From: a virus | IMG/VR virus record: IMGVR_UViG_3300046167_000498 | Coordinates: 1-35,167 of that record | Length of the DNA: 35,167 nt | Direction: 5' to 3' (one strand) | Shown here: positions 7,413 to 24,207 of the stretch, piece by piece | Position numbering within the stretch: the first letter of the stretch is position 1 | Layout of the letters: every line of letters starts with the position of its first letter | Made by a program: the position numbers and the translations under genes | The notes under the pieces: generated by a model | The model's database searches: none | What the model was told of the DNA's origin: nothing | The model's input: only the letters and a program-made list of their open reading frames with translations

Positions 7413-8558
7413 CTAACCGAGTAGTGTTGCTATGAAGTCTGGCTTCCAAGCTTTTACACCCCAAGCAACGGCAACTTCAATCATTGCCTTGCGATATCCT
7501 TTGTACATACGTACTTCGAATACCATCCCTGAGTGTGGGTCTTGCACTAAGATAGCGTCATCTGCAGTGTCACCGCCTTCTGGAACAGCAGGTGCCCTAA
7601 CAGCTAATTCTAACGCACGTCTGTGCATTGCAATGTTTGCTGTATATGAGTTTCCGACTGTGATAGCGGCATTGTCTGCAGCGGCTGAACGTAGTCCAGT
7701 GTTACCGATTGTGAATGAGCCACCAGATAGTGCAGTGTTAACGCAATACTTATTGCTGTCACCATTGATTGTAATGATGTCGCCTTTAAGGATTGTACCT
7801 GAGCCACCATCTGCAGCAATTGATGTATCGCCAATAGCTGAGCTAGCGTCGTTTACAAGATAGCTAGTGCCAGTGCCTTTAGTATGTGACTGCACTTGTG
7901 CGCTCTCACGCATTGCTAACCCTTGTAGGTCAAGTAATACACCTTGTCTTAGCAAATCACTAGAACCTGCGTCTGAAACGCTTTGTAGTGTAGCTAACTG
8001 ACGTAGGTTTGTACCTGCGACTGAGTTCATAATAAGTGAACACTGTCCGTCATTTGATGGCATACCATTATCAACTAAGATTTGACGTATTTCAGCTACG
8101 TCACCAAAGTTAGAACCGAATGGTGTAGTTCCTGCTGTACCAAATGCACGTGAAGCGTTCTTATAAGCTTCTGTTGCAAGGTCTACTTCAATCTCATTTG
8201 ATAGTGTACGCATTGCCTGTACGAGTTGGTCGCCATAAACAGTCTCAAAACCAATACCATTGTTAAGATGTCTTACATCTTCTCCAGTGTAAGGGATTTG
8301 CACTGCACGTGACTTAGAGATTGATAGTGTTTTGCTATCTACTGTTTGGTCTGTTCCTTCTGGAATAGTCATGCTCTCTGCTACGTCAACAGCTGATGCT
8401 TCACGTGTGAATGATGCTCGAACTGTATCGCCTTTAGCAACTCTCTCTGAGCCGTCTGCGTTGATTGTTGATGCAGGGATAAAGCCTACTAGCTCTCTAC
8501 CTACGACGTCTGCAGCCTTATATATATCAGCCGCCAAGTTTGTTAATACGTTAGCCAT
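7413..8558 (-). CDS. major capsid protein, P22 coat-like (HK97 fold)
   Basis: The 381-residue protein starts MANVLTNLAADIYKAADVVG and ends VAVAWGVKAWKPDFIATLLG, both typical of the P22 gene 5-type coat family. An IP.TGEDVR segment near residue 88 and QVQSHTKG...NDASSAIGDTSI in the middle fit the same family. Residues about 230-300 form a beta-rich insertion compatible with the accessory domain seen in that group. The ATG has a strong AGGAGG site. The scaffold gene lies immediately upstream and a terminator downstream. This is the most abundant virion protein expected. Confidence 0.92.
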   Translation of the reverse strand: MANVLTNLAADIYKAADVVGRELVGFIPASTINADGSERVAKGDTVRASFTREASAVDVAESMTIPEGTDQTVDSKTLSISKSRAVQIPYTGEDVRHLNNGIGFETVYGDQLVQAMRTLSNEIEVDLATEAYKNASRAFGTAGTTPFGSNFGDVAEIRQILVDNGMPSNDGQCSLIMNSVAGTNLRQLATLQSVSDAGSSDLLRQGVLLDLQGLAMRESAQVQSHTKGTGTSYLVNDASSAIGDTSIAADGGSGTILKGDIITINGDSNKYCVNTALSGGSFTIGNTGLRSAAADNAAITVGNSYTANIAMHRRALELAVRAPAVPEGGDTADDAILVQDPHSGMVFEVRMYKGYRKAMIEVAVAWGVKAWKPDFIATLLG

Positions 8559-8578: not shown

Positions 8579-9244
8579 TTAATCGTTAGTTATTTTGCCG
8601 CCTGACTTGATATAATGCGCTCTTTGACCTTGTGACATGCCATCGAAGTCATTACGACTTATCTCTTTACCACGCTCGGCACTACCTTGCGCTCTTGTGG
8701 CACTGCCACCTGATGATTGTGAACCATCAACTAAAAAGGGATAATTAGTTTTTATAGAACCTGTTAAGTCCTCCAGTGTTGATACAGTTAATGCACCAGA
8801 CTGGTCTGTCACCCTTAGTTCGCCATCAACAATAGTAAGCCTCTGGCTTATCTGCTGCTGTAACAATTCTGCTCTGCCTGTGTCCTTAGTTAGTCCACTT
8901 GCAATCTTACCTGCTTCACCACTAATACGACTTCGCGTTATATCAGTGTTCATTTTCTCAATTGTCCCACGCAACGTATCGGCTTCTGCCTTTTGCGCTT
9001 CGAACAACTGCTTATAATCGTTCTCTGCCTGAGCCTTACTTTCGGCTTGGGCTTTTGCTTCGGCTTGAGCTTGCTCACGCTCCTGTTGCGCTCGCTTTTT
9101 CTCACCTAATAATTCGTCTACTTTAGACTTCAATCCTTTTGTTTCGTCGTCTAGCTTACTCTTTATAGCCTGATTTACCTTTTCGGACAAAGCATTTTTT
9201 ACATCGTCCTCTAGCTCAATTCCTTCAAATAGTTCATTAGTCAT
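8579..9244 (-). CDS. capsid scaffolding protein
   Basis: This 221-residue acidic and Gln/Ala/Lys-rich protein has a long predicted coiled coil at about residues 40-105 (GEKKRAQQEREQAQAEAKAQ and on). A flexible Ser/Gly region and a small basic C-terminal helix-turn segment follow (GKEISRNDFDGMSQGQRAHY IKSGG). That is the usual build of phage scaffolds, where the C-terminal segment binds coat protein. It sits directly before the capsid gene with a GGAGG ribosome site. No protease motif is present, so scaffold exit is probably without cleavage, as in P22. Confidence 0.88.
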   Translation of the reverse strand: MTNELFEGIELEDDVKNALSEKVNQAIKSKLDDETKGLKSKVDELLGEKKRAQQEREQAQAEAKAQAESKAQAENDYKQLFEAQKAEADTLRGTIEKMNTDITRSRISGEAGKIASGLTKDTGRAELLQQQISQRLTIVDGELRVTDQSGALTVSTLEDLTGSIKTNYPFLVDGSQSSGGSATRAQGSAERGKEISRNDFDGMSQGQRAHYIKSGGKITND

Positions 9245-9287
9245 GCTGTAACCTCCAGTTTGTTAGCATTATGTGGCTCTGCCACGA

Positions 9288-9479
9288 TTAGTATTCTACC
9301 CCAATAGTTTCTGGGTCTGTTTCTATATAAGGCACATTAGTATCAATTGCATCTAAAAACTCCTCTATAAACCACTCTTTTGGTTCTGACCAATTTGCTC
9401 CATATATTATTGGCTCATAGCCAAATTTATCTTTGTGCAATAAGACTGCTTCGTCATATGTTGTTTTTATATTTGCCAT
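9288..9479 (-). CDS. hypothetical acidic protein, 63 aa
   Basis: The gene has a strong ribosome site (GAGGAG before ATAAAATG) and lies between the minor head protein and the scaffold, so it is probably expressed with the head genes. The product, MANIKTTYDEAVLLHKDKFG onward, is acidic in its second half (EEFLDAIDTNVPYIETDPET). No family is recognised and there is no membrane segment. A capsid-assembly accessory role would fit the position but there is no direct evidence. Confidence 0.65.
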   Translation of the reverse strand: MANIKTTYDEAVLLHKDKFGYEPIIYGANWSEPKEWFIEEFLDAIDTNVPYIETDPETIGVEY

Positions 9480-9491
9480 TTTATCTCCTCA

Positions 9492-11414
9492 TCAATAATA
9501 TTTTAGATAGTCCTCTAATATGTCCTCAAATGCCTTAAATAAATTAGGGAACATTTTACGTGCCTTCCTTGCAGCAGGGGTATTGTTTTTATGTAATGCC
9601 CATAATTGTGCAAATACTTCTTTTTCTTTCATGCCTTTAATTCTAAAATACCTTACACCATGCCCACTATGTGTTCGACTATGGAACTGCCCTAAGCTCA
9701 TTGCGTCTAGTATGTCATCAATTGCGCCCCAACCATAACCAGTATACTCATCTCTTTTCTTAAATGTACGATAACCAGCACGCTGACTAGCAACTTCCTT
9801 CCATGTTTCTTTCTGCCAAGCTTTACCAAAAGCAGTTTTCTCACTTTTATTTTTCCAAAGTGCTTTACGGTCACTTTTAAATGCTTCTATAAATCGTTTA
9901 TCCATCATTGATACGTAGTATCTTGTGTCAAGGTTACTTATGCTATCATCTAGTTTATGTTTATCCATAAAGACTGTTTTATTTCTACTTAATATTCCCT
10001 TTTTGTAGCCAGCAATGCTTCTTTCTCTAGCTGCTCTCCCTATCATATCGTCAATAAAGTGACCATACTCATGCGTCATAACTGCCTTGCTTTTGTCTAA
10101 TGTCCCTTGTTTTATGTTAATTAAACTGTCATTACGATTATAAAAGCCACCCTTTTTACCTAAATTAAATGCCTTCAACTTAGGTGCTTTAGCCGCGACC
10201 TGTGCAGTCAATGTTGATAGGTTTGGTAATAACGCATTATACATATCTTTCTTTATCTTATCGTCTACACGTGTCTCCTCGAATAACTCTTTTAATACCT
10301 TCTCTATAGGCGTTGCTTTAGGTGTTACAACAGCTGCTTGTACTACTTGAGCTAATGGCACGCCTCCAGCGCCTCCAGTGCCACCCATGCTGCGCTCTAA
10401 TGCGCGTAATTGCGCTAAGCTTAATGGTCTGCCATTTGCATCAACAAACTTATCTAGTTTAACCTTACCTGACCTAAATATACTGGCTTTGCCCTTGCCT
10501 AACACTTCGTCCTGAAATGCTTTAGGCTGCGTCCTGAGCCACTTTGCATAATTTGTGTCGTCACTAACCAGCTTAGCCTTGTTATCAGCTCCTACGCTCG
10601 GCCTAGTGCCTTTAACGTCCCTTCCTAAGTTAAATTCTGGCTTTACTATATAACTTATAGTGCTTCTGCAGTTAAAGTGTGCTGGTGGCTTCGGGTTCTT
10701 CTTTAAGTCCTTAAATATCTTACCATCCAAGCCCATACAGATAAGACTGGTGAAGCTGTCCAGTGTGGCAACCCATTTGTAGTGGCTAATGACGTCGCTG
10801 TTCTCACGCATAGTAGTCGTCCTAGCTACTGTGCTAACGCGATTGATTATAGTCCTAGCTAATGTGGCTGCTTGTCTGCGCTGCGTCATACCTATTGCGA
10901 CAATTGCTTTGGTTATATTACTTGTTGTGCTTCCTTTTATAATGCCGTCGCGTATCTGCTGTATTATCTGCGTCTGTTTCTTAGTGTCAAAGTTCCTGAG
11001 TGCATTAGCTATTGTATAACCCTTGTTCGGCTCCAGCTGCATAACATCAGTAAACATTGCAGCCTCTAACAGCTGGGAACTGGGCAAGGTAAAATTGGCA
11101 TAGTTACCGACGTTCTGTCTTAGCAGCTCAGTGTTAAACTCTGCCTCATAGTTAGCAAAGTCTATTATCTCGCTATATAACTTAGCCTGATAGTCATCTG
11201 ACAGACGTGTCATGTAGTTCTGCATGTCTGTTAACTGTGCTGATAGTCGTGCTTGCGTGTATACTGTGTTGTCACCACGTCCTAGCTCACTGCTTATACC
11301 TCGTATCAGTCTCCTTATGTAAGCCTCAGCCTCACGCTCACGACCTTTTGCATATCGTTGCACGAATATCTGATGCCTTATAAATGCACTTTCTAGCGTA
11401 TCATTAACGCTCAT
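9492..11414 (-). CDS. minor head protein (Mu gpF-like) fused to zincin-type metallopeptidase domain
   Basis: The 640-residue protein has an N-terminal helical part (1-200), then a Mu F-like head-morphogenesis core around 190-260 with RTTTMRENSD, a Cys in SLICMGLDGKIF and PPAHFNCRSTI. A Gly/Ala-rich linker lies at about 342-365. The C-terminal part carries HEYGH at 448-452 (HExxH) and a GHGVRYF...KEVFAQLWAL segment in which Glu599 could be the third zinc ligand. The family core is known to be a minor capsid protein ejected or packaged with the head. The peptidase reading is inference from the motif pair. It follows the two small basic genes after portal. Confidence 0.82.
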   Translation of the reverse strand: MSVNDTLESAFIRHQIFVQRYAKGREREAEAYIRRLIRGISSELGRGDNTVYTQARLSAQLTDMQNYMTRLSDDYQAKLYSEIIDFANYEAEFNTELLRQNVGNYANFTLPSSQLLEAAMFTDVMQLEPNKGYTIANALRNFDTKKQTQIIQQIRDGIIKGSTTSNITKAIVAIGMTQRRQAATLARTIINRVSTVARTTTMRENSDVISHYKWVATLDSFTSLICMGLDGKIFKDLKKNPKPPAHFNCRSTISYIVKPEFNLGRDVKGTRPSVGADNKAKLVSDDTNYAKWLRTQPKAFQDEVLGKGKASIFRSGKVKLDKFVDANGRPLSLAQLRALERSMGGTGGAGGVPLAQVVQAAVVTPKATPIEKVLKELFEETRVDDKIKKDMYNALLPNLSTLTAQVAAKAPKLKAFNLGKKGGFYNRNDSLINIKQGTLDKSKAVMTHEYGHFIDDMIGRAARERSIAGYKKGILSRNKTVFMDKHKLDDSISNLDTRYYVSMMDKRFIEAFKSDRKALWKNKSEKTAFGKAWQKETWKEVASQRAGYRTFKKRDEYTGYGWGAIDDILDAMSLGQFHSRTHSGHGVRYFRIKGMKEKEVFAQLWALHKNNTPAARKARKMFPNLFKAFEDILEDYLKYY

Positions 11415-11417
11415 AAG

Positions 11418-11510
11418 CTATTTCTTTTTGTATTGCCTTGGCTTTGCTTTAGTCTTGCTTGGCTTTGCTTTAGCTTTATTAGCTGTCTTACTTTTGTTTT
11501 TATACGGCAT
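11418..11510 (-). CDS. very small Lys-rich protein, 30 aa
   Basis: An ATG at 11510, 7 nt after the stop of the preceding gene and preceded by GGTGAG, opens a 30-codon frame ending at TAG. About half of the residues are Lys or Arg (MPYKNKSKTANKAKAKPSKT then KAKPRQYKKK). Its stop is 4 nt before the minor head start, so it fits the packed operon. Basic mini-proteins of this sort could bind DNA or act in head assembly. The coding call rests on the tight spacing and composition; the function is unknown. Confidence 0.55.
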   Translation of the reverse strand: MPYKNKSKTANKAKAKPSKTKAKPRQYKKK

Positions 11511-11516
11511 AATTTC

Positions 11517-11789
11517 TCACCATTTTTCCTTCGCTGACCAGTATGCTGCGCTCATTTTACCTTTTGCTATGTTCTTAGCATGTCTTGCCTTAAAGCTTGC
11601 TCTACGTGCCTTAGATGCCTTGCTTTCACCCTTTCTAGCTGGTGAACCCTTAACACCTTGCTGTCCAAATCGTATTATCTTTTCCTTGCCACCTTCACAT
11701 GCTTTTACGACGTGTGATTTGGTTGCATGACTAGGTGTACGTTTCGGTGTGTTACACTTCATTTTAGACTTATCGATTTGCTTAGCCAT
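11517..11789 (-). CDS. conserved small basic phage protein, 90 aa
   Basis: The ATG at 11789 (MAKQIDKSKMKCNTPKRTPS) is preferred over an in-frame start at 11816 because it lies just past the portal stop with GGAG upstream. The protein is strongly basic, with the segment KSHVVKACEGGKEKIIRFGQ followed by QGVKGSPARKGESKASKARR and a C-terminal KGKMSAAYW. I have seen closely similar small proteins in marine phage genomes near portal or terminase genes, but I know no function. The FGQQGVKG and HAKNI..GKMSAAYW motifs look like structured contacts, perhaps with DNA or portal. Confidence 0.75.
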   Translation of the reverse strand: MAKQIDKSKMKCNTPKRTPSHATKSHVVKACEGGKEKIIRFGQQGVKGSPARKGESKASKARRASFKARHAKNIAKGKMSAAYWSAKEKW

Positions 11790-11793
11790 GTTT

Positions 11794-13188
11794 CTACTCC
11801 AGTGGTGACAAGTCACCTAGCTCATCACGCACATCATCTAGTGTGCGCTCTGCATCAATTAGGCCACCTGATTTAAGTCTGTCAAATATATCTTGGCTAC
11901 TAACTATCTGTCTGTCCAACAATGTCACTAGGCTCATTATTGTTTGTGGGTCAACGGACTTATCGTAAAACTCTCTATTGATTGTAAATACGCAGTCATC
12001 AGTTGGTGCACCCATATACTCACCACACCAATATATACATGTCTTAATAGCTGATGATAAGTTACCAACTATATCACCAAGCACGCTGTTCTCTGATGCA
12101 AAGCGTATTCTAGCCCCTTCAGCTGTCTCATTGCTTCCCCTGTCGGTTATTATACGCGCACCAATGGCAACCATTTGCTGCTCTTTAGCGTTCATAGCTT
12201 CCATGACAAGATTATTAGGGTTTGCTTGCAGTAGATTAGCACTACCAGTCTCGCCTAATACATGTCCAGCACGACTGCCTATCTTTATGCCCTCTGGGTT
12301 ATACTCGCTCCATTGCTCTTGTGTTAGGCTGTGCGTGATAAATAGCGTTGGTTGACCTGTAATAAAGCAACTCTCCTCATAATCAGCTGAGTTTCTGTAG
12401 TGCGCCATATTTACATCCGCTATATCTGATAGTGGTGCATCGTCAATTGTAGGGTCATTGTTTTGGCTGCCAACAAAAACAGCTGGAATATAATCAAATG
12501 TGCTGCCATCTGATTTACGTGGATAATACATTTCAGTGTAGGGTTTGTGGTCACGATATAACTGCTGGCTATAACCTTGGTCGTCCAGTCTCATAACCCT
12601 GTATTGCGTTTTGGTTTCGTGACTAAACTCATCACTGTTCTCTAGGTATGGCTCTGCCGTTACCACAAGTGTCAATACATTACGTCCAGCGACAACATCT
12701 GTTTTCCAGTTGATAACAGCTTCAGCTGCATAAGGCACGATAGATGCACGCATATCATATAGCTGCACTTCCTCTGCTGATAAGCCTTCGTCTGCAGTAG
12801 GATAATCAACCAGCAACATTGTTCTACCTGTTTCTAGTAAGTTACTCAGCTCATCTTTAGCTAATTGCTCCAGTGATAACCCATCACCTGTTGCGTCATC
12901 TATTAAGTATTGTAGGGCTTCTGGCAGCTCTACTATTGGTGCTTTCCTAAATGCTGCGCCAACTAATGCGTTCTTTGTTCGTCCTGTGTAGTTAGTAAAT
13001 ACCGCACGATTTATATATTGCTTGTATCTAACGCTATCAATTCCTCTAGGGTTTGTGTCTGCATCTGGGACTGGTAGATATTGTGCTTTCTTGTCTTTGA
13101 CTGCCACTGAGCCTCTCACTGCGTCACGTGTCTTTATCCAGACGTTTTTGTATAGGTCGTATGTTGGGTTAGTTGTATCGACTGGCAT
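11794..13188 (-). CDS. portal protein (DUF4055 family)
   Basis: The 464-residue protein begins MPVDTTNPTYDLYKNVWIKT and has the DUF4055 layout: RDAVRGSVAVKDK, the GRTKNALVGAAFRKAP segment near residue 70, ELSNLLETGRTMLLVDYP near 110-127 and NRGSNETAEGARIRFASENS-like sequence in the C-terminal third (TDRGSNETAEGARI). Portals form the dodecameric DNA channel at one capsid vertex. The gene follows the large terminase and precedes the basic small proteins and minor head gene, the standard order. The ATG has AGAGG upstream. Confidence 0.9.
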   Translation of the reverse strand: MPVDTTNPTYDLYKNVWIKTRDAVRGSVAVKDKKAQYLPVPDADTNPRGIDSVRYKQYINRAVFTNYTGRTKNALVGAAFRKAPIVELPEALQYLIDDATGDGLSLEQLAKDELSNLLETGRTMLLVDYPTADEGLSAEEVQLYDMRASIVPYAAEAVINWKTDVVAGRNVLTLVVTAEPYLENSDEFSHETKTQYRVMRLDDQGYSQQLYRDHKPYTEMYYPRKSDGSTFDYIPAVFVGSQNNDPTIDDAPLSDIADVNMAHYRNSADYEESCFITGQPTLFITHSLTQEQWSEYNPEGIKIGSRAGHVLGETGSANLLQANPNNLVMEAMNAKEQQMVAIGARIITDRGSNETAEGARIRFASENSVLGDIVGNLSSAIKTCIYWCGEYMGAPTDDCVFTINREFYDKSVDPQTIMSLVTLLDRQIVSSQDIFDRLKSGGLIDAERTLDDVRDELGDLSPLE

Positions 13189-13224: not shown

Positions 13225-14454
13225 TTAATTAGTGAAAGTAAAGTCTACCTTAGCCACTGGTCTGACTATCGGGAACTCATATGCTATTGGATATGTTGTT
13301 GCATCGTTCTGATGGTCTGTGCCACTGGTCTTATCGGGTTCGCCGTTCTTGTATGCTTGCTGCTCTAAGCACTCAGCTGTTGTCGGGCAAGCACTATCAT
13401 TTATCTTAACAAACCCTTGGTCAAACGCTCTGTTAGCTGCCATCACCCTGTCACGCACTCTGGGATTGCTTGGCTTAGCACGTATAACAAACCCTGCTTG
13501 CTGCAGTAAGCTTATATCACTAACGCTTGCGTTGTTAGTGCTGCGTCCTCTGCCTGATGCGTCTGGATACATATATATCTTATGGTCATTGTACTTTGAT
13601 TTAATGATATCAATCATATCTGGCGTGTCATACATATCAACCAGCTCATCAACAGCGTGCCATGTCTTGCCCCTCAGCACGTAAATGGTGGCTGCTTGCT
13701 TAGTTACGTTAAAGTCACAACCAATAAACAATGGCTCTCTATCAGTAACAACCTCATGCGACCTACATGCAGCTCTGTCATAGCTGTTGTAAACTGTCCC
13801 TGAGTTAAGATTAACAAACTGTCCTTCTAGGTATGCTGCAAGCAGCTGTGGTGAATAAGTCTCACGTAATCTATCTATGTAATCAGCTGGCAGGTTCTTT
13901 GCATTGCTCGACGTTGGTGCAGTGATTAGCTCATAGCTTGGACTAGGGTTCTTTTTCCAGCGTTCGTATACAAAGCCAAAGCCCTCTGGTGTTGTTCCAA
14001 CTGCAACTGTATTGATGCCTGTTGGCAATTTCTGTCGGTTACGTGCTATAATCTGCTCCCAACATCGCTGAGCCTTTAATTTTGGCAAAGTGTCTAACTC
14101 ATCTACATAGGAATGGCTACACTCGTATCCCACTATGCGCTCTGGTCTATCTAATGTCCTAAATATAATTCTCTTACCTAATACTTCAATGAAGTTACCT
14201 TGTGCATTTAACCTGTAAGGTATATTGCAGCTGCTAAGCAATTCACGCCAGCGTGGGTAGCAAATATCCCTAATTAATTGGTATGTTGGCATGTAGAAAG
14301 CTTGGTCTAATCCATCAGTGATAAGCATACGCAAGCACCTAAGCATAAGGCCATGTGTTTTACCTGCACCAAAGCCAGCGACCATACAAACGAAAGGACT
14401 ATTGCTTTCTATAAATGCTTTCTGTGGTTCTGATGCTGACGTTTCTAATATCAT
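13225..14454 (-). CDS. terL: terminase large subunit
   Basis: The 409-residue packaging motor shows a Walker A GFGAGKT at 27-33, Walker B ending in D118-E119 (SYVDEL), the coupling motif GTTPEG at 153-158, and an RNase H-like nuclease with candidate metal ligands D247 (GCDF), D298 (PDAS) and D384 (HQNDA). It therefore has both ATPase and DNA-cleaving activity. The start overlaps the small subunit stop as ATGA. The length is in the normal range. A headful mode would fit the circular permutation suggested by the window ends, but the sequence does not prove the packaging type. Confidence 0.95.
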   Translation of the reverse strand: MILETSASEPQKAFIESNSPFVCMVAGFGAGKTHGLMLRCLRMLITDGLDQAFYMPTYQLIRDICYPRWRELLSSCNIPYRLNAQGNFIEVLGKRIIFRTLDRPERIVGYECSHSYVDELDTLPKLKAQRCWEQIIARNRQKLPTGINTVAVGTTPEGFGFVYERWKKNPSPSYELITAPTSSNAKNLPADYIDRLRETYSPQLLAAYLEGQFVNLNSGTVYNSYDRAACRSHEVVTDREPLFIGCDFNVTKQAATIYVLRGKTWHAVDELVDMYDTPDMIDIIKSKYNDHKIYMYPDASGRGRSTNNASVSDISLLQQAGFVIRAKPSNPRVRDRVMAANRAFDQGFVKINDSACPTTAECLEQQAYKNGEPDKTSGTDHQNDATTYPIAYEFPIVRPVAKVDFTFTN

Positions 14455-22854: not shown

Positions 22855-23172
22855 ATGACAAATAAAATAATATATGAGACTAGCAAAGAGGGTAATGGTG
22901 TTTTTAATGTTAAGATATTTGACGATGGAACAGTTGACACGACTGACGATGACAATATGAACTTGAATGTATTCGACAATGTTAATGATGCTATCAACTG
23001 GCATTACAAACAATATCGCCTCATAAAAAACAGAGAGGCAAATTCACACGAAAATATCGTTTATCATTTAATGCCTTTCCATAATTATGACATGCCACTA
23101 ATTGTGGATAGCCAATGGAATATCATAAGTGCAGTTTGGGATAATACTGAACCAAAAGGAGTAGAAACATGA
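22855..23172 (+). CDS. hypothetical protein, 105 aa, first gene of rightward operon
   Basis: This plus-strand gene opens the only rightward operon and carries leader copy e with GGAG upstream. The 105-residue product begins MTNKIIYETSKEGNGVFNVK and is acidic, with a Thr/Asp run (DGTVDTTDDDNMNLNVFDNV) and an aromatic middle (INWHYKQYRLIKNREAN). No known domain. Its stop overlaps the start of the Cro-like regulator (ATGA), so both are made together. Confidence 0.72.
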   Translation: MTNKIIYETSKEGNGVFNVKIFDDGTVDTTDDDNMNLNVFDNVNDAINWHYKQYRLIKNREANSHENIVYHLMPFHNYDMPLIVDSQWNIISAVWDNTEPKGVET

Positions 23173-23381
23173 CTAAATATACAGTTGAAGGCATTATAGA
23201 AAACTGTGGTGGTGCATCTGTCATAGCATCACATTGCACTAACCTAAAAGCTGACAGCATTCGTAAATGGATTACACGTGGAATACCTGAGAAACACTGG
23301 TCAACCATAATTAAATTACATGGCTGGCTGCTTAATGCTAATCAGCTGCATAAGCTAAATGAAAGTGTACGTGATGATTGA
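23169..23381 (+). CDS. Cro/YdaS-like HTH regulator, 70 aa
   Basis: The 70-residue product has the pattern IIENCGGASVIASHC, then ADSIRKWITRGIPEKHWSTI IKLHGW. This is the signature of small Cro-like phage regulators (C-G-G-x-x-x-I-A ... V/I-x-x-W-x-x-R-G-I-P-x-x-x-W). It would bind operators in the divergent region and govern leftward against rightward transcription. AGGAG precedes the start. There is no integrase in the genome, so it does not by itself show lysogeny. No CI-like partner with a peptidase domain is present. Confidence 0.82.
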   Translation: MTKYTVEGIIENCGGASVIASHCTNLKADSIRKWITRGIPEKHWSTIIKLHGWLLNANQLHKLNESVRDD

Positions 23382-23553
23382 GCAAGTAAAAGATAAGTCT
23401 GGCGTTAGCACATATTATACTACGCACCCATACTACAACAAATTTAAGTATCGTAACGCTGTTTTAAGACGTGACAAACGCGACCAACATCATTGGCTTG
23501 CAAAGGTTAAGCAAGATATAATCAACTCTCTGCGAGGCTCTGGTGCGCTTTAG
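23359..23553 (+). CDS. hypothetical basic protein, 64 aa
   Basis: The frame overlaps the end of the Cro-like gene by 23 nt and the HNH gene by 11 nt. The product, MKVYVMIEQVKDKSGVSTYY onward, is basic with many His, Lys, Arg and Tyr (HPYYNKFKYRNAVLRRDKRD QHHW). A second Met at position 6 (23374) is an alternative start with less overlap; neither has a strong ribosome site. No known family. It may be translated by coupling from its neighbour. Confidence 0.55.
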   Translation: MKVYVMIEQVKDKSGVSTYYTTHPYYNKFKYRNAVLRRDKRDQHHWLAKVKQDIINSLRGSGAL

Positions 23554-23905
23554 TGACGATATAACATATCAGCGTTACAAGCCATTAACCAAGTATGAGT
23601 TTGCTGAACTATTCTTGCAGCAGCAAGGTTTATGCTCGACGTGCTCAACCAAGCTAGAATTAAAGCCTTACAAGATACATACTGAGCATCTCAGCCAACG
23701 TGCTTTGTCTGATAGCAACGCACATAACTTATCCAACATTGCACTAACATGTGTGCCTTGCAGCAAAGTTAAGAACGCAGCTGATGCAAAGGCAAGGGCT
23801 AAAGTAAGACGGCTGTTAGGTGTAAACAAAGATAAACCAAAGCAAAAGATAGCTAGTCGGAAATTTAATCAAGTAAGCAAACCAAACATAAGGGAAATAG
23901 ACTAA
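23543..23905 (+). CDS. HNH endonuclease
   Basis: A GTG at 23543 starts a 120-residue protein with an HNH core: CSTCSTKLEL, then IHTEHLSQRALSDSNAHNLS and NIALTCVPCSKVKN. The two CxxC pairs bind a structural zinc, and H-x-E-H with the following Asn residues form the nuclease site. A basic tail follows (KARAKVRRLLGVNKDKPKQK). HNH enzymes beside packaging genes help terminase, but here it is in the rightward operon far from terL, so it may be a homing-type or host-DNA nuclease. The start codon is uncertain. Confidence 0.8.
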   Translation: MRFSDDITYQRYKPLTKYEFAELFLQQQGLCSTCSTKLELKPYKIHTEHLSQRALSDSNAHNLSNIALTCVPCSKVKNAADAKARAKVRRLLGVNKDKPKQKIASRKFNQVSKPNIREID

Positions 23906-24207
23906 TGGCTTTTATACAAAAATGGAATTGGCACGATAACATTGACGAATACATGAACACATACTTTCTTAACCAAGAGCTTGTCCATGAAGATGATGAC
24001 TGCTTAAAGTATGACTTTCATTTATTTAGACGTGATGTCTACACTAACAAGTTCAATTTTATTGAGACACTAAACTGGTCGTCATACACGACTTATGGTG
24101 CTGATAAGGCAACTGAGTTTTATGCTATTTGTGATAAATTAGAGCTACAATATAAACAAGCTGCTAACGTGGCCTCACGGTTGTTCGGTGGACTTCGCCA
24201 AGTTTAG
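23905..24207 (+). CDS. hypothetical protein, 100 aa, last gene of rightward operon
   Basis: The start overlaps the HNH stop (TAATG). The product begins MAFIQKWNWHDNIDEYMNTY and is acidic and aromatic-rich. It ends with a helical LQYKQAANVASRLFGGLRQV. Its last 44 nt overlap the end of the metallophosphoesterase gene on the other strand, so the two operons meet tail to tail with no gap. No domain recognised. Confidence 0.68.
   Translation: MAFIQKWNWHDNIDEYMNTYFLNQELVHEDDDCLKYDFHLFRRDVYTNKFNFIETLNWSSYTTYGADKATEFYAICDKLELQYKQAANVASRLFGGLRQV

What the first reader, a model, noticed from the sequence alone, without database searches (positions are those of the whole stretch)
9492..11414. Minor head protein fused to an HExxH metallopeptidase domain
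The Mu F-like core ends near residue 260; beyond a Gly/Ala linker the C-terminal half has HEYGH (448-452) and a GHG...Y...E-V-F-A segment with Glu599 as possible third zinc ligand. This would put a protease inside the capsid, possibly injected with DNA or used in head maturation. The scaffold has no protease of its own.
Basis: partly seen in the sequence, partly recalled or inferred. Interest (0 to 1): 0.65.

Follow-up and report, generated by a model that had tools for sequence, protein, structure and literature searches.

The report
Phage head protein with protease cassette
A phage's minor head protein ends in a predicted zinc protease related to the lethal-factor/Pro-Pro-endopeptidase group, encoded together with a small partner protein and swapped between related phages as one unit, so it is most likely a virion-carried effector (a known kind, the MuF toxins) rather than a head-maturation enzyme.

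Summary
The gene lies on the minus strand (9492-11414, 640 aa): a MuF/SPP1-gp7 head protein whose C-terminal ~270 residues contain HEYGH (448-452) and E599. In a 20-sequence alignment of MuF-fused relatives (15-27% identical outside the closest four) the invariant residues are H448, E449, H452, D455, D567, H585, Y589, E599 and A602. AlphaFold gives a good model (pTM 0.81). Its best solved matches are lethal factor and Pro-Pro endopeptidases, and a profile search agrees. The domain is therefore a predicted LF-like zincin.

A 63-aa ORF (9288-9479) starts 12 nt after the stop. Every intact MuF-zincin gene I could read has such an ORF, and these form one family. Between near-identical phages the zincin plus this ORF diverge sharply (dS 1.5-2.2 and 0.6-0.8, against 0.2-0.3 in adjacent head genes); outside this segment identity returns to about 94%. 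It is an exchanged cassette. Phages with the same MuF/scaffold type lack it, which argues against head maturation.

Best reading: a MuF-type virion-delivered protease effector with a cognate small partner, probably an inhibitor. This is a new member of a known kind (Jamet 2017). Target, activity and inhibition are untested.

The parts
9492..11414 (-). MuF-zincin fusion protein, 640 aa
   Evidence: ORF; phrog_241, Phage_Mu_F, TIGR01641; 100% identical in IMG/VR contigs L001 and L002
10392..11414 (-). MuF / SPP1 gp7-type head morphogenesis core, residues 1-341
   Evidence: tblastn to many phages stops at ~residue 341; phrog_241 1-350
10656..10970 (-). Pfam Phage_Mu_F domain, residues 149-253
   Evidence: E 2.8e-15
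10326..10388 (-). Gly/Ala-rich linker, residues 343-363; divergence from related phages starts just after it (~10300)
   Evidence: sequence; identity profile
9495..10304 (-). LF/PPEP-like zincin (predicted metallopeptidase) domain, residues 371-640
   Evidence: model pLDDT 77, pTM 0.81; Foldseek to lethal factor/PPEP; profile hits; phrog_4728 E 1.1e-12
10059..10073 (-). HEYGH (H448, E449, H452), predicted zinc ligands and catalytic Glu
   Evidence: invariant in 20/20, partly by search design
10050..10052 (-). D455 of HExxHxxD
   Evidence: invariant 20/20
9714..9716 (-). D567, invariant
   Evidence: 20/20
9648..9662 (-). H585...Y589 (HGVRY); Y589 a candidate catalytic Tyr
   Evidence: H585 and Y589 20/20, Y to E spacing 10 in 19 of 20
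9618..9620 (-). E599, predicted third zinc ligand (E.FA motif)
   Evidence: 20/20; helix 233-246 of the model
9288..9479 (-). 63-aa acidic (pI 4.1) partner protein, candidate inhibitor/immunity protein; GAGGAG ribosome site upstream
   Evidence: ORF; family membership E 5.3e-6 in leave-out HMM; diverges together with the zincin domain
9288..10304 (-). Exchanged cassette: zincin domain plus partner (left edge approximate, right edge at the partner stop codon)
   Evidence: identity 51-86% inside versus about 94% outside; flank returns to 19-20/20 from 9280 on; dS 1.5-2.2 in the zincin and 0.6-0.8 in the partner versus 0.2-0.3 in MuF core, scaffold and capsid genes
8579..9244 (-). Scaffold protein, phrog_206, no protease domain

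Best explanation
The gene encodes a MuF-type minor head protein that carries a lethal-factor/PPEP-like zinc metallopeptidase as a C-terminal effector. The MuF half puts a few copies at the portal/inside the head (inferred from the SPP1 gp7 and Mu F families); the copies enter the host with the DNA, where the protease cleaves a bacterial protein (target unknown). The adjacent 63-aa protein, made in the producing cell, binds the protease and keeps it inactive until packaging or delivery. Protease domain and partner are exchanged between phages as one cassette. Shown by sequence: the fusion, the invariant zincin residues, the paired partner family, the cassette divergence. Supported by prediction: the fold. 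Inferred: packaging, injection, proteolysis, inhibition.
For: MuF domain. Invariant HExxHxxD, D, H..Y and E.FA in MuF-fused relatives down to 15% identity. Confident model, best PDB matches lethal factor and PPEP-1. Profile of the 20 sequences finds lethal factor at E 7.7e-6 and PPEP at 0.05. Every intact MuF-zincin gene that could be read is followed, from -11 to +12 nt, by a 50-85 aa ORF. These ORFs form one family: the window's scores E 5.3e-6 against a model of sequences under 45% identical, among 527 decoys. None is found in 8 control MuF loci without the cassette. Domain plus partner diverge as a block with high dS while dN/dS stays 0.14-0.36 in window comparisons. Partner distances follow peptidase distances after correction for the MuF core (partial r 0.53). 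Two MuF toxins with neutralising neighbours are proven: Apk2 (PMC12226406) and Bxa (PMC11699363).
Against: No experimental evidence of proteolysis, toxicity or binding for any member. No complex could be modelled. Partner distances also track the MuF core (partial r 0.51), so vertical co-inheritance explains part of the pairing. The strong conservation of one partner family is unusual for immunity proteins and would fit a chaperone too. No integrase was recognised in the window, whereas MuF toxins were described from temperate phages; the record may be incomplete.
Confidence: 0.64

Rival explanations
1. Autoprocessing peptidase: the zincin cuts its own MuF protein (or a neighbour) during assembly or after injection, releasing the head-bound part, as proposed for metallopeptidase domains of phage polyvalent proteins.
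For: Iyer et al. 2017 (PMC5512222) propose autoproteolysis for phage MPTase domains, citing processing of P1 DdrB.
Against: Here the zincin is the last domain with no further effector to release, and it comes with its own partner gene. Allelic exchange of the domain is not expected of a self-processing module whose substrate, the MuF core, stays nearly identical.
Confidence: 0.13
2. The pair is an enzyme and its folding/packaging chaperone: the small partner helps load the bulky C-terminal domain into the procapsid rather than inhibiting it.
For: Partner is always adjacent, small and in one conserved family, just before the scaffold gene in this window.
Against: The partner is mostly acidic, diverges with the catalytic domain and not with the MuF core or scaffold. 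Published analogues (IapK, Bsi) are inhibitors (PMC12226406, PMC11699363).
Confidence: 0.14
3. Head-maturation protease that trims scaffold or capsid protein.
For: Gene order portal, MuF-zincin, partner, scaffold, major capsid; no separate head protease recognised.
Against: Phages with the same MuF family and a phrog_206 scaffold, e.g. phiSD1, have a MuF protein without the domain. The domain diverges while the presumed substrates are nearly identical (MuF core, scaffold and capsid dN about 0.01).
Confidence: 0.06
4. Degenerate or inactive zincin kept only as a structural extension of the head protein.
For: No activity is known for any member.
Against: All predicted catalytic and metal residues are invariant across very distant members and dN/dS of the domain is 0.14-0.19 against the related phages.
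Confidence: 0.03

Closest known systems
MuF polymorphic toxins of temperate phages (Jamet et al. 2017, PMC5576092)
   Same: MuF N-terminal domain next to the portal gene, C-terminal enzymatic domain, small ORF immediately downstream; 20% of their 191 putative MuF toxins have a metallopeptidase domain and 89.4% a small downstream ORF.
   Different: The partner family shared by LF-like zincin members and the cassette exchange were not mentioned in the passages I read; lysogeny of this phage is not shown.
Apk2 and Bxa MuF toxins with IapK/Aph1 and Bsi/BAH (PMC12226406, PMC11699363)
   Same: Same architecture and gene order, with experimentally proven toxicity and neutralisation.
   Different: Their catalytic domains are a (p)ppApp synthetase and an ADP-ribosyltransferase, not a protease.
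Lethal factor (M34/ATLF) and Pro-Pro endopeptidase zincins
   Same: Closest solved folds and profile matches: HExxH helix, later Glu.
   Different: Very remote (Foldseek E 0.03, TM 0.40 to LF; Pfam ATLF below cut-off); no delivery part of those proteins; fused to a phage head protein.
Zincin-like MPTase of polyvalent proteins (Iyer et al. 2017, PMC5512222)
   Same: Phage virion-associated zincin, with Asp three residues after HExxH as here (D455).
   Different: No conserved His before the motif (none in residues 371-447); Pfam MPTase-PolyVal not matched by the window domain.
phrog_4728 (head morphogenesis)
   Same: MuF plus this C-terminal domain; window C-terminus E 1.1e-12.
   Different: Annotated only as head morphogenesis; the protease is not named.

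Membership tests
MuF (Phage_Mu_F / SPP1 gp7) minor head proteins | Phage_Mu_F domain above Pfam cut-off | tested here: met
   57.5 bits against cut-off 29.6; TIGR01641 57.7 against 39.65
MuF (Phage_Mu_F / SPP1 gp7) minor head proteins | Gene next to terminase/portal and scaffold/capsid genes | tested here: met
   terL 13225-14454, portal 11794-13188, scaffold 8579-9244, capsid 7413-8558
MuF polymorphic toxins | C-terminal enzymatic domain after the MuF domain | tested here: met
   Zincin domain 371-640
MuF polymorphic toxins | Small ORF immediately downstream (candidate immunity gene) | tested here: met
   63-aa ORF 12 nt downstream, family conserved
MuF polymorphic toxins | C-terminal domain exchanged while the N-terminus is conserved | tested here: met
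   dS 1.5-2.2 versus 0.2-0.3; only alleles of the same zincin class were seen in close relatives
MuF polymorphic toxins | Toxicity neutralised by the partner | not testable with these tools
   needs expression experiments
MuF polymorphic toxins | Carried by a temperate phage | tested here: inconclusive
   No integrase among the proteins scanned; virus record, completeness unknown
Clan MA zincins, LF/PPEP (M34-like) group | HExxH plus downstream Glu ligand, conserved | tested here: met
   20/20, with search bias for HExxH
Clan MA zincins, LF/PPEP (M34-like) group | Fold match to solved members | tested here: met
   Foldseek probability 1.00 to lethal factor, 0.4-0.75 to PPEP-1/Zmp1, but E 0.03-2; profile E 7.7e-6
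Clan MA zincins, LF/PPEP (M34-like) group | Pfam ATLF (PF07737) above cut-off | tested here: not met
   14.1 bits against 27.4; so it is called LF-like, not a member of that Pfam family
Clan MA zincins, LF/PPEP (M34-like) group | H448, H452 and E599 converge on one zinc site | tested here: inconclusive
MPTase-PolyVal (PF18818) | Pfam match | tested here: not met
   No match for the window domain
Head maturation protease | Required in the capsid module of the family | tested here: not met
   Same-family MuF/scaffold phages lack the domain

The most novel reading that the evidence does not exclude
LF-like MuF zincins and one family of 50-85 aa partner proteins form an obligate protease-inhibitor pair spread over unrelated tailed phages (hosts include Streptococcus, Enterococcus, Listeria, Clostridioides and Stenotrophomonas, plus environmental phages), exchanged as a two-gene cassette. 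It would be the first defined protease-inhibitor class of virion-delivered MuF effectors, possibly also in non-temperate phages.
Probability: 0.42. Interest if true: 0.6.

Novelty: new member of a known kind. Interest (0 to 1): 0.42.

Why it matters
Only two MuF toxin activities are experimentally known, (p)ppApp synthesis and ADP-ribosylation. Metallopeptidases make up about a fifth of the predicted MuF toxins but none has a known target or inhibitor, as far as the papers searched show. Here the catalytic residues, the domain edges and a specific partner gene are defined, with natural alleles on a near-identical backbone that allow cognate versus non-cognate partner tests. That makes the question of what a phage does with a protease carried in its head directly testable.

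Tried and rejected
Plus-strand reading of 9492-11414: many stops, not coding. Sequence search of the domain alone in PDB: nothing; it needed the 20-member profile. Genome-contig searches with the domain: no relatives. Plasmids: none. Pfam, NCBIfam and PADLOC for the partner: no match; PHROGs only phrog_36451 (unknown function) for the Listeria B054 partner. Partner model (pLDDT 78, alpha-beta-alpha-beta): no PDB fold match. Pfam M48 hit (E 0.0008) is below cut-off and covers mainly the region before and at HExxH; rejected as the family because fold and profile favour LF/PPEP. The weak TssO hit was ignored as chance. Relaxed selection as the cause of the domain's divergence was rejected because synonymous divergence is also high there. 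Printing residue-level alignments to lethal factor was not done, as no toxin of a listed germ was to be fetched.

Full report
What is there. The ORF at 9492-11414 is on the minus strand and encodes 640 aa. It lies between the portal (phrog_145, 11794-13188) and scaffold (phrog_206, 8579-9244) genes of a tailed-phage head module, with terL upstream and the major capsid gene downstream. Residues 1-350 match phrog_241 head morphogenesis (E 1.6e-96), with Phage_Mu_F at 149-253. A Gly/Ala-rich stretch (343-363) links it to the C-terminal domain.

The C-terminal domain. HEYGH is at 448-452; chance expectation is 0.007 per protein of this composition. Single-sequence searches gave only weak peptidase hits (M48 0.0008, ATLF 0.04). 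tblastn with the domain alone reached Listeria phage B054, Streptococcus phage Javan202 and Flyfo myovirus, all MuF proteins ending in HExxHxxD ... H..Y ... E.FA (B054 and Flyfo vary slightly between these motifs). From these I collected further MuF-fused relatives in phages and IMG/VR. In the 20-member alignment H448, E449, H452, D455, D567, H585, Y589, E599 and A602 are invariant. Caveat: two searches used patterns containing HExxH or the later Glu motif, so part of that invariance is selected. AlphaFold on this alignment gave pLDDT 77 and pTM 0.81, with three strands before the HExxH helix and E599 on a later helix. The best PDB folds are lethal factor (probability 1.00, TM 0.40, E 0.03), then PPEP-1/Zmp1; the best viral models are minor capsid proteins. 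The profile independently finds lethal factor (E 7.7e-6 to 0.002) and PPEP (0.05) by sequence. I conclude that it is a predicted LF/PPEP-like zincin, though not above the Pfam ATLF cut-off.

The partner. A 63-aa acidic ORF (9288-9479) starts 12 nt after the stop behind a GAGGAG ribosome site. In every locus with an intact MuF-zincin gene and sequence beyond it, an ORF of 50-85 aa begins -11 to +12 nt from the stop (BUCT702 only looks like an exception because its record is cut there). The ORFs reduce to 20 non-redundant sequences; models built without close relatives recover the window's at E 5.3e-6 and most others (the weakest are Javan351 at E 0.96 and B054 at 0.09). L084 adds one more. Eight MuF loci without this cassette show no such ORF (best E 0.71). 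In the phage collection the searched partners occur only beside MuF-zincin genes, apart from satellite phage Javan343, which keeps an intact partner next to a truncated zincin piece. The partner model is a small alpha-beta-alpha-beta domain without a known fold match.

The cassette. Three related IMG/VR phages (L003, L004, L005) share about 94% DNA identity with the window in the MuF core, scaffold and capsid genes. From ~10300 down to the partner stop codon identity falls to 51-86%, then returns at once. dS is 1.5-2.2 in the zincin domain and 0.6-0.8 in the partner, against 0.2-0.3 in the MuF core, scaffold and capsid genes, while dN/dS stays 0.14-0.36. High synonymous divergence means replacement by recombination rather than relaxed selection. 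Across 21 loci partner distance correlates with peptidase distance (r 0.70; partial r 0.53 given the MuF core), and also with the core itself (partial 0.51).

Function. Zhang 2012 (PMC3482391), Jamet 2017 (PMC5576092) and Iyer 2017 (PMC5512222) describe MuF fusions as virion-delivered effectors; Jamet reports metallopeptidases in 20% of MuF toxins and small ORFs after 89.4%. Apk2 and Bxa prove toxin plus neutraliser for two other enzyme types. The present pair fits that scheme: a head-carried protease with a co-exchanged partner, most likely an inhibitor. Head maturation is unlikely because phages with the same MuF and scaffold families, such as phiSD1, lack the domain and because the presumed substrates are nearly identical while the protease allele changes. 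Autoprocessing and a chaperone role for the partner remain open.

Limits. No activity, binding or packaging was tested; no coordinates were available to measure the zinc site; the complex was not modelled; no integrase was recognised among the proteins scanned, so temperate lifestyle is unproven.

Noticed in passing
window 9273-9285 (minus strand): A short perfect hairpin (GTGGC-AGA-GCCAC) follows the partner stop codon, inside a 43-nt stretch identical in all five IMG/VR relatives; no T run, function unknown.
   Followed up: partly
L003:996-2611: A related phage carries two extra genes between portal and the small pre-MuF gene: one similar to the N-terminus of type II methyltransferases (PADLOC MTase_II 1.1e-37), one ATPase-like with weak mad3 similarity.
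   Followed up: partly
L027 (Streptococcus satellite phage Javan343) 2483-2958: Truncated MuF-zincin C-terminus without HExxH, followed by an intact partner gene 97.6% identical to that of phage Javan351: an orphan partner on a satellite.
   Followed up: partly
window 11420-11816 (minus strand): Between portal and MuF lie a basic 99-aa ORF (phrog_7595; in part similar to phrog_220 minor head protein and DNA pilot) and a ~30-aa very Lys-rich peptide ORF just before the MuF start.
   Followed up: no
L088 (Bordetella phage CN2) and L085 (Variovorax phage V45iii): Long ORFs in these head modules hold other HExxH motifs in different positions (HEYAH, HELGH) without the partner family; possibly other zincin types fused to head proteins.
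   Followed up: no
window 22855-24207 (plus strand): A small divergent group of short plus-strand ORFs, including an HNH endonuclease (23543-23905), opposite to all other genes; may be an early or regulatory region.
   Followed up: partly
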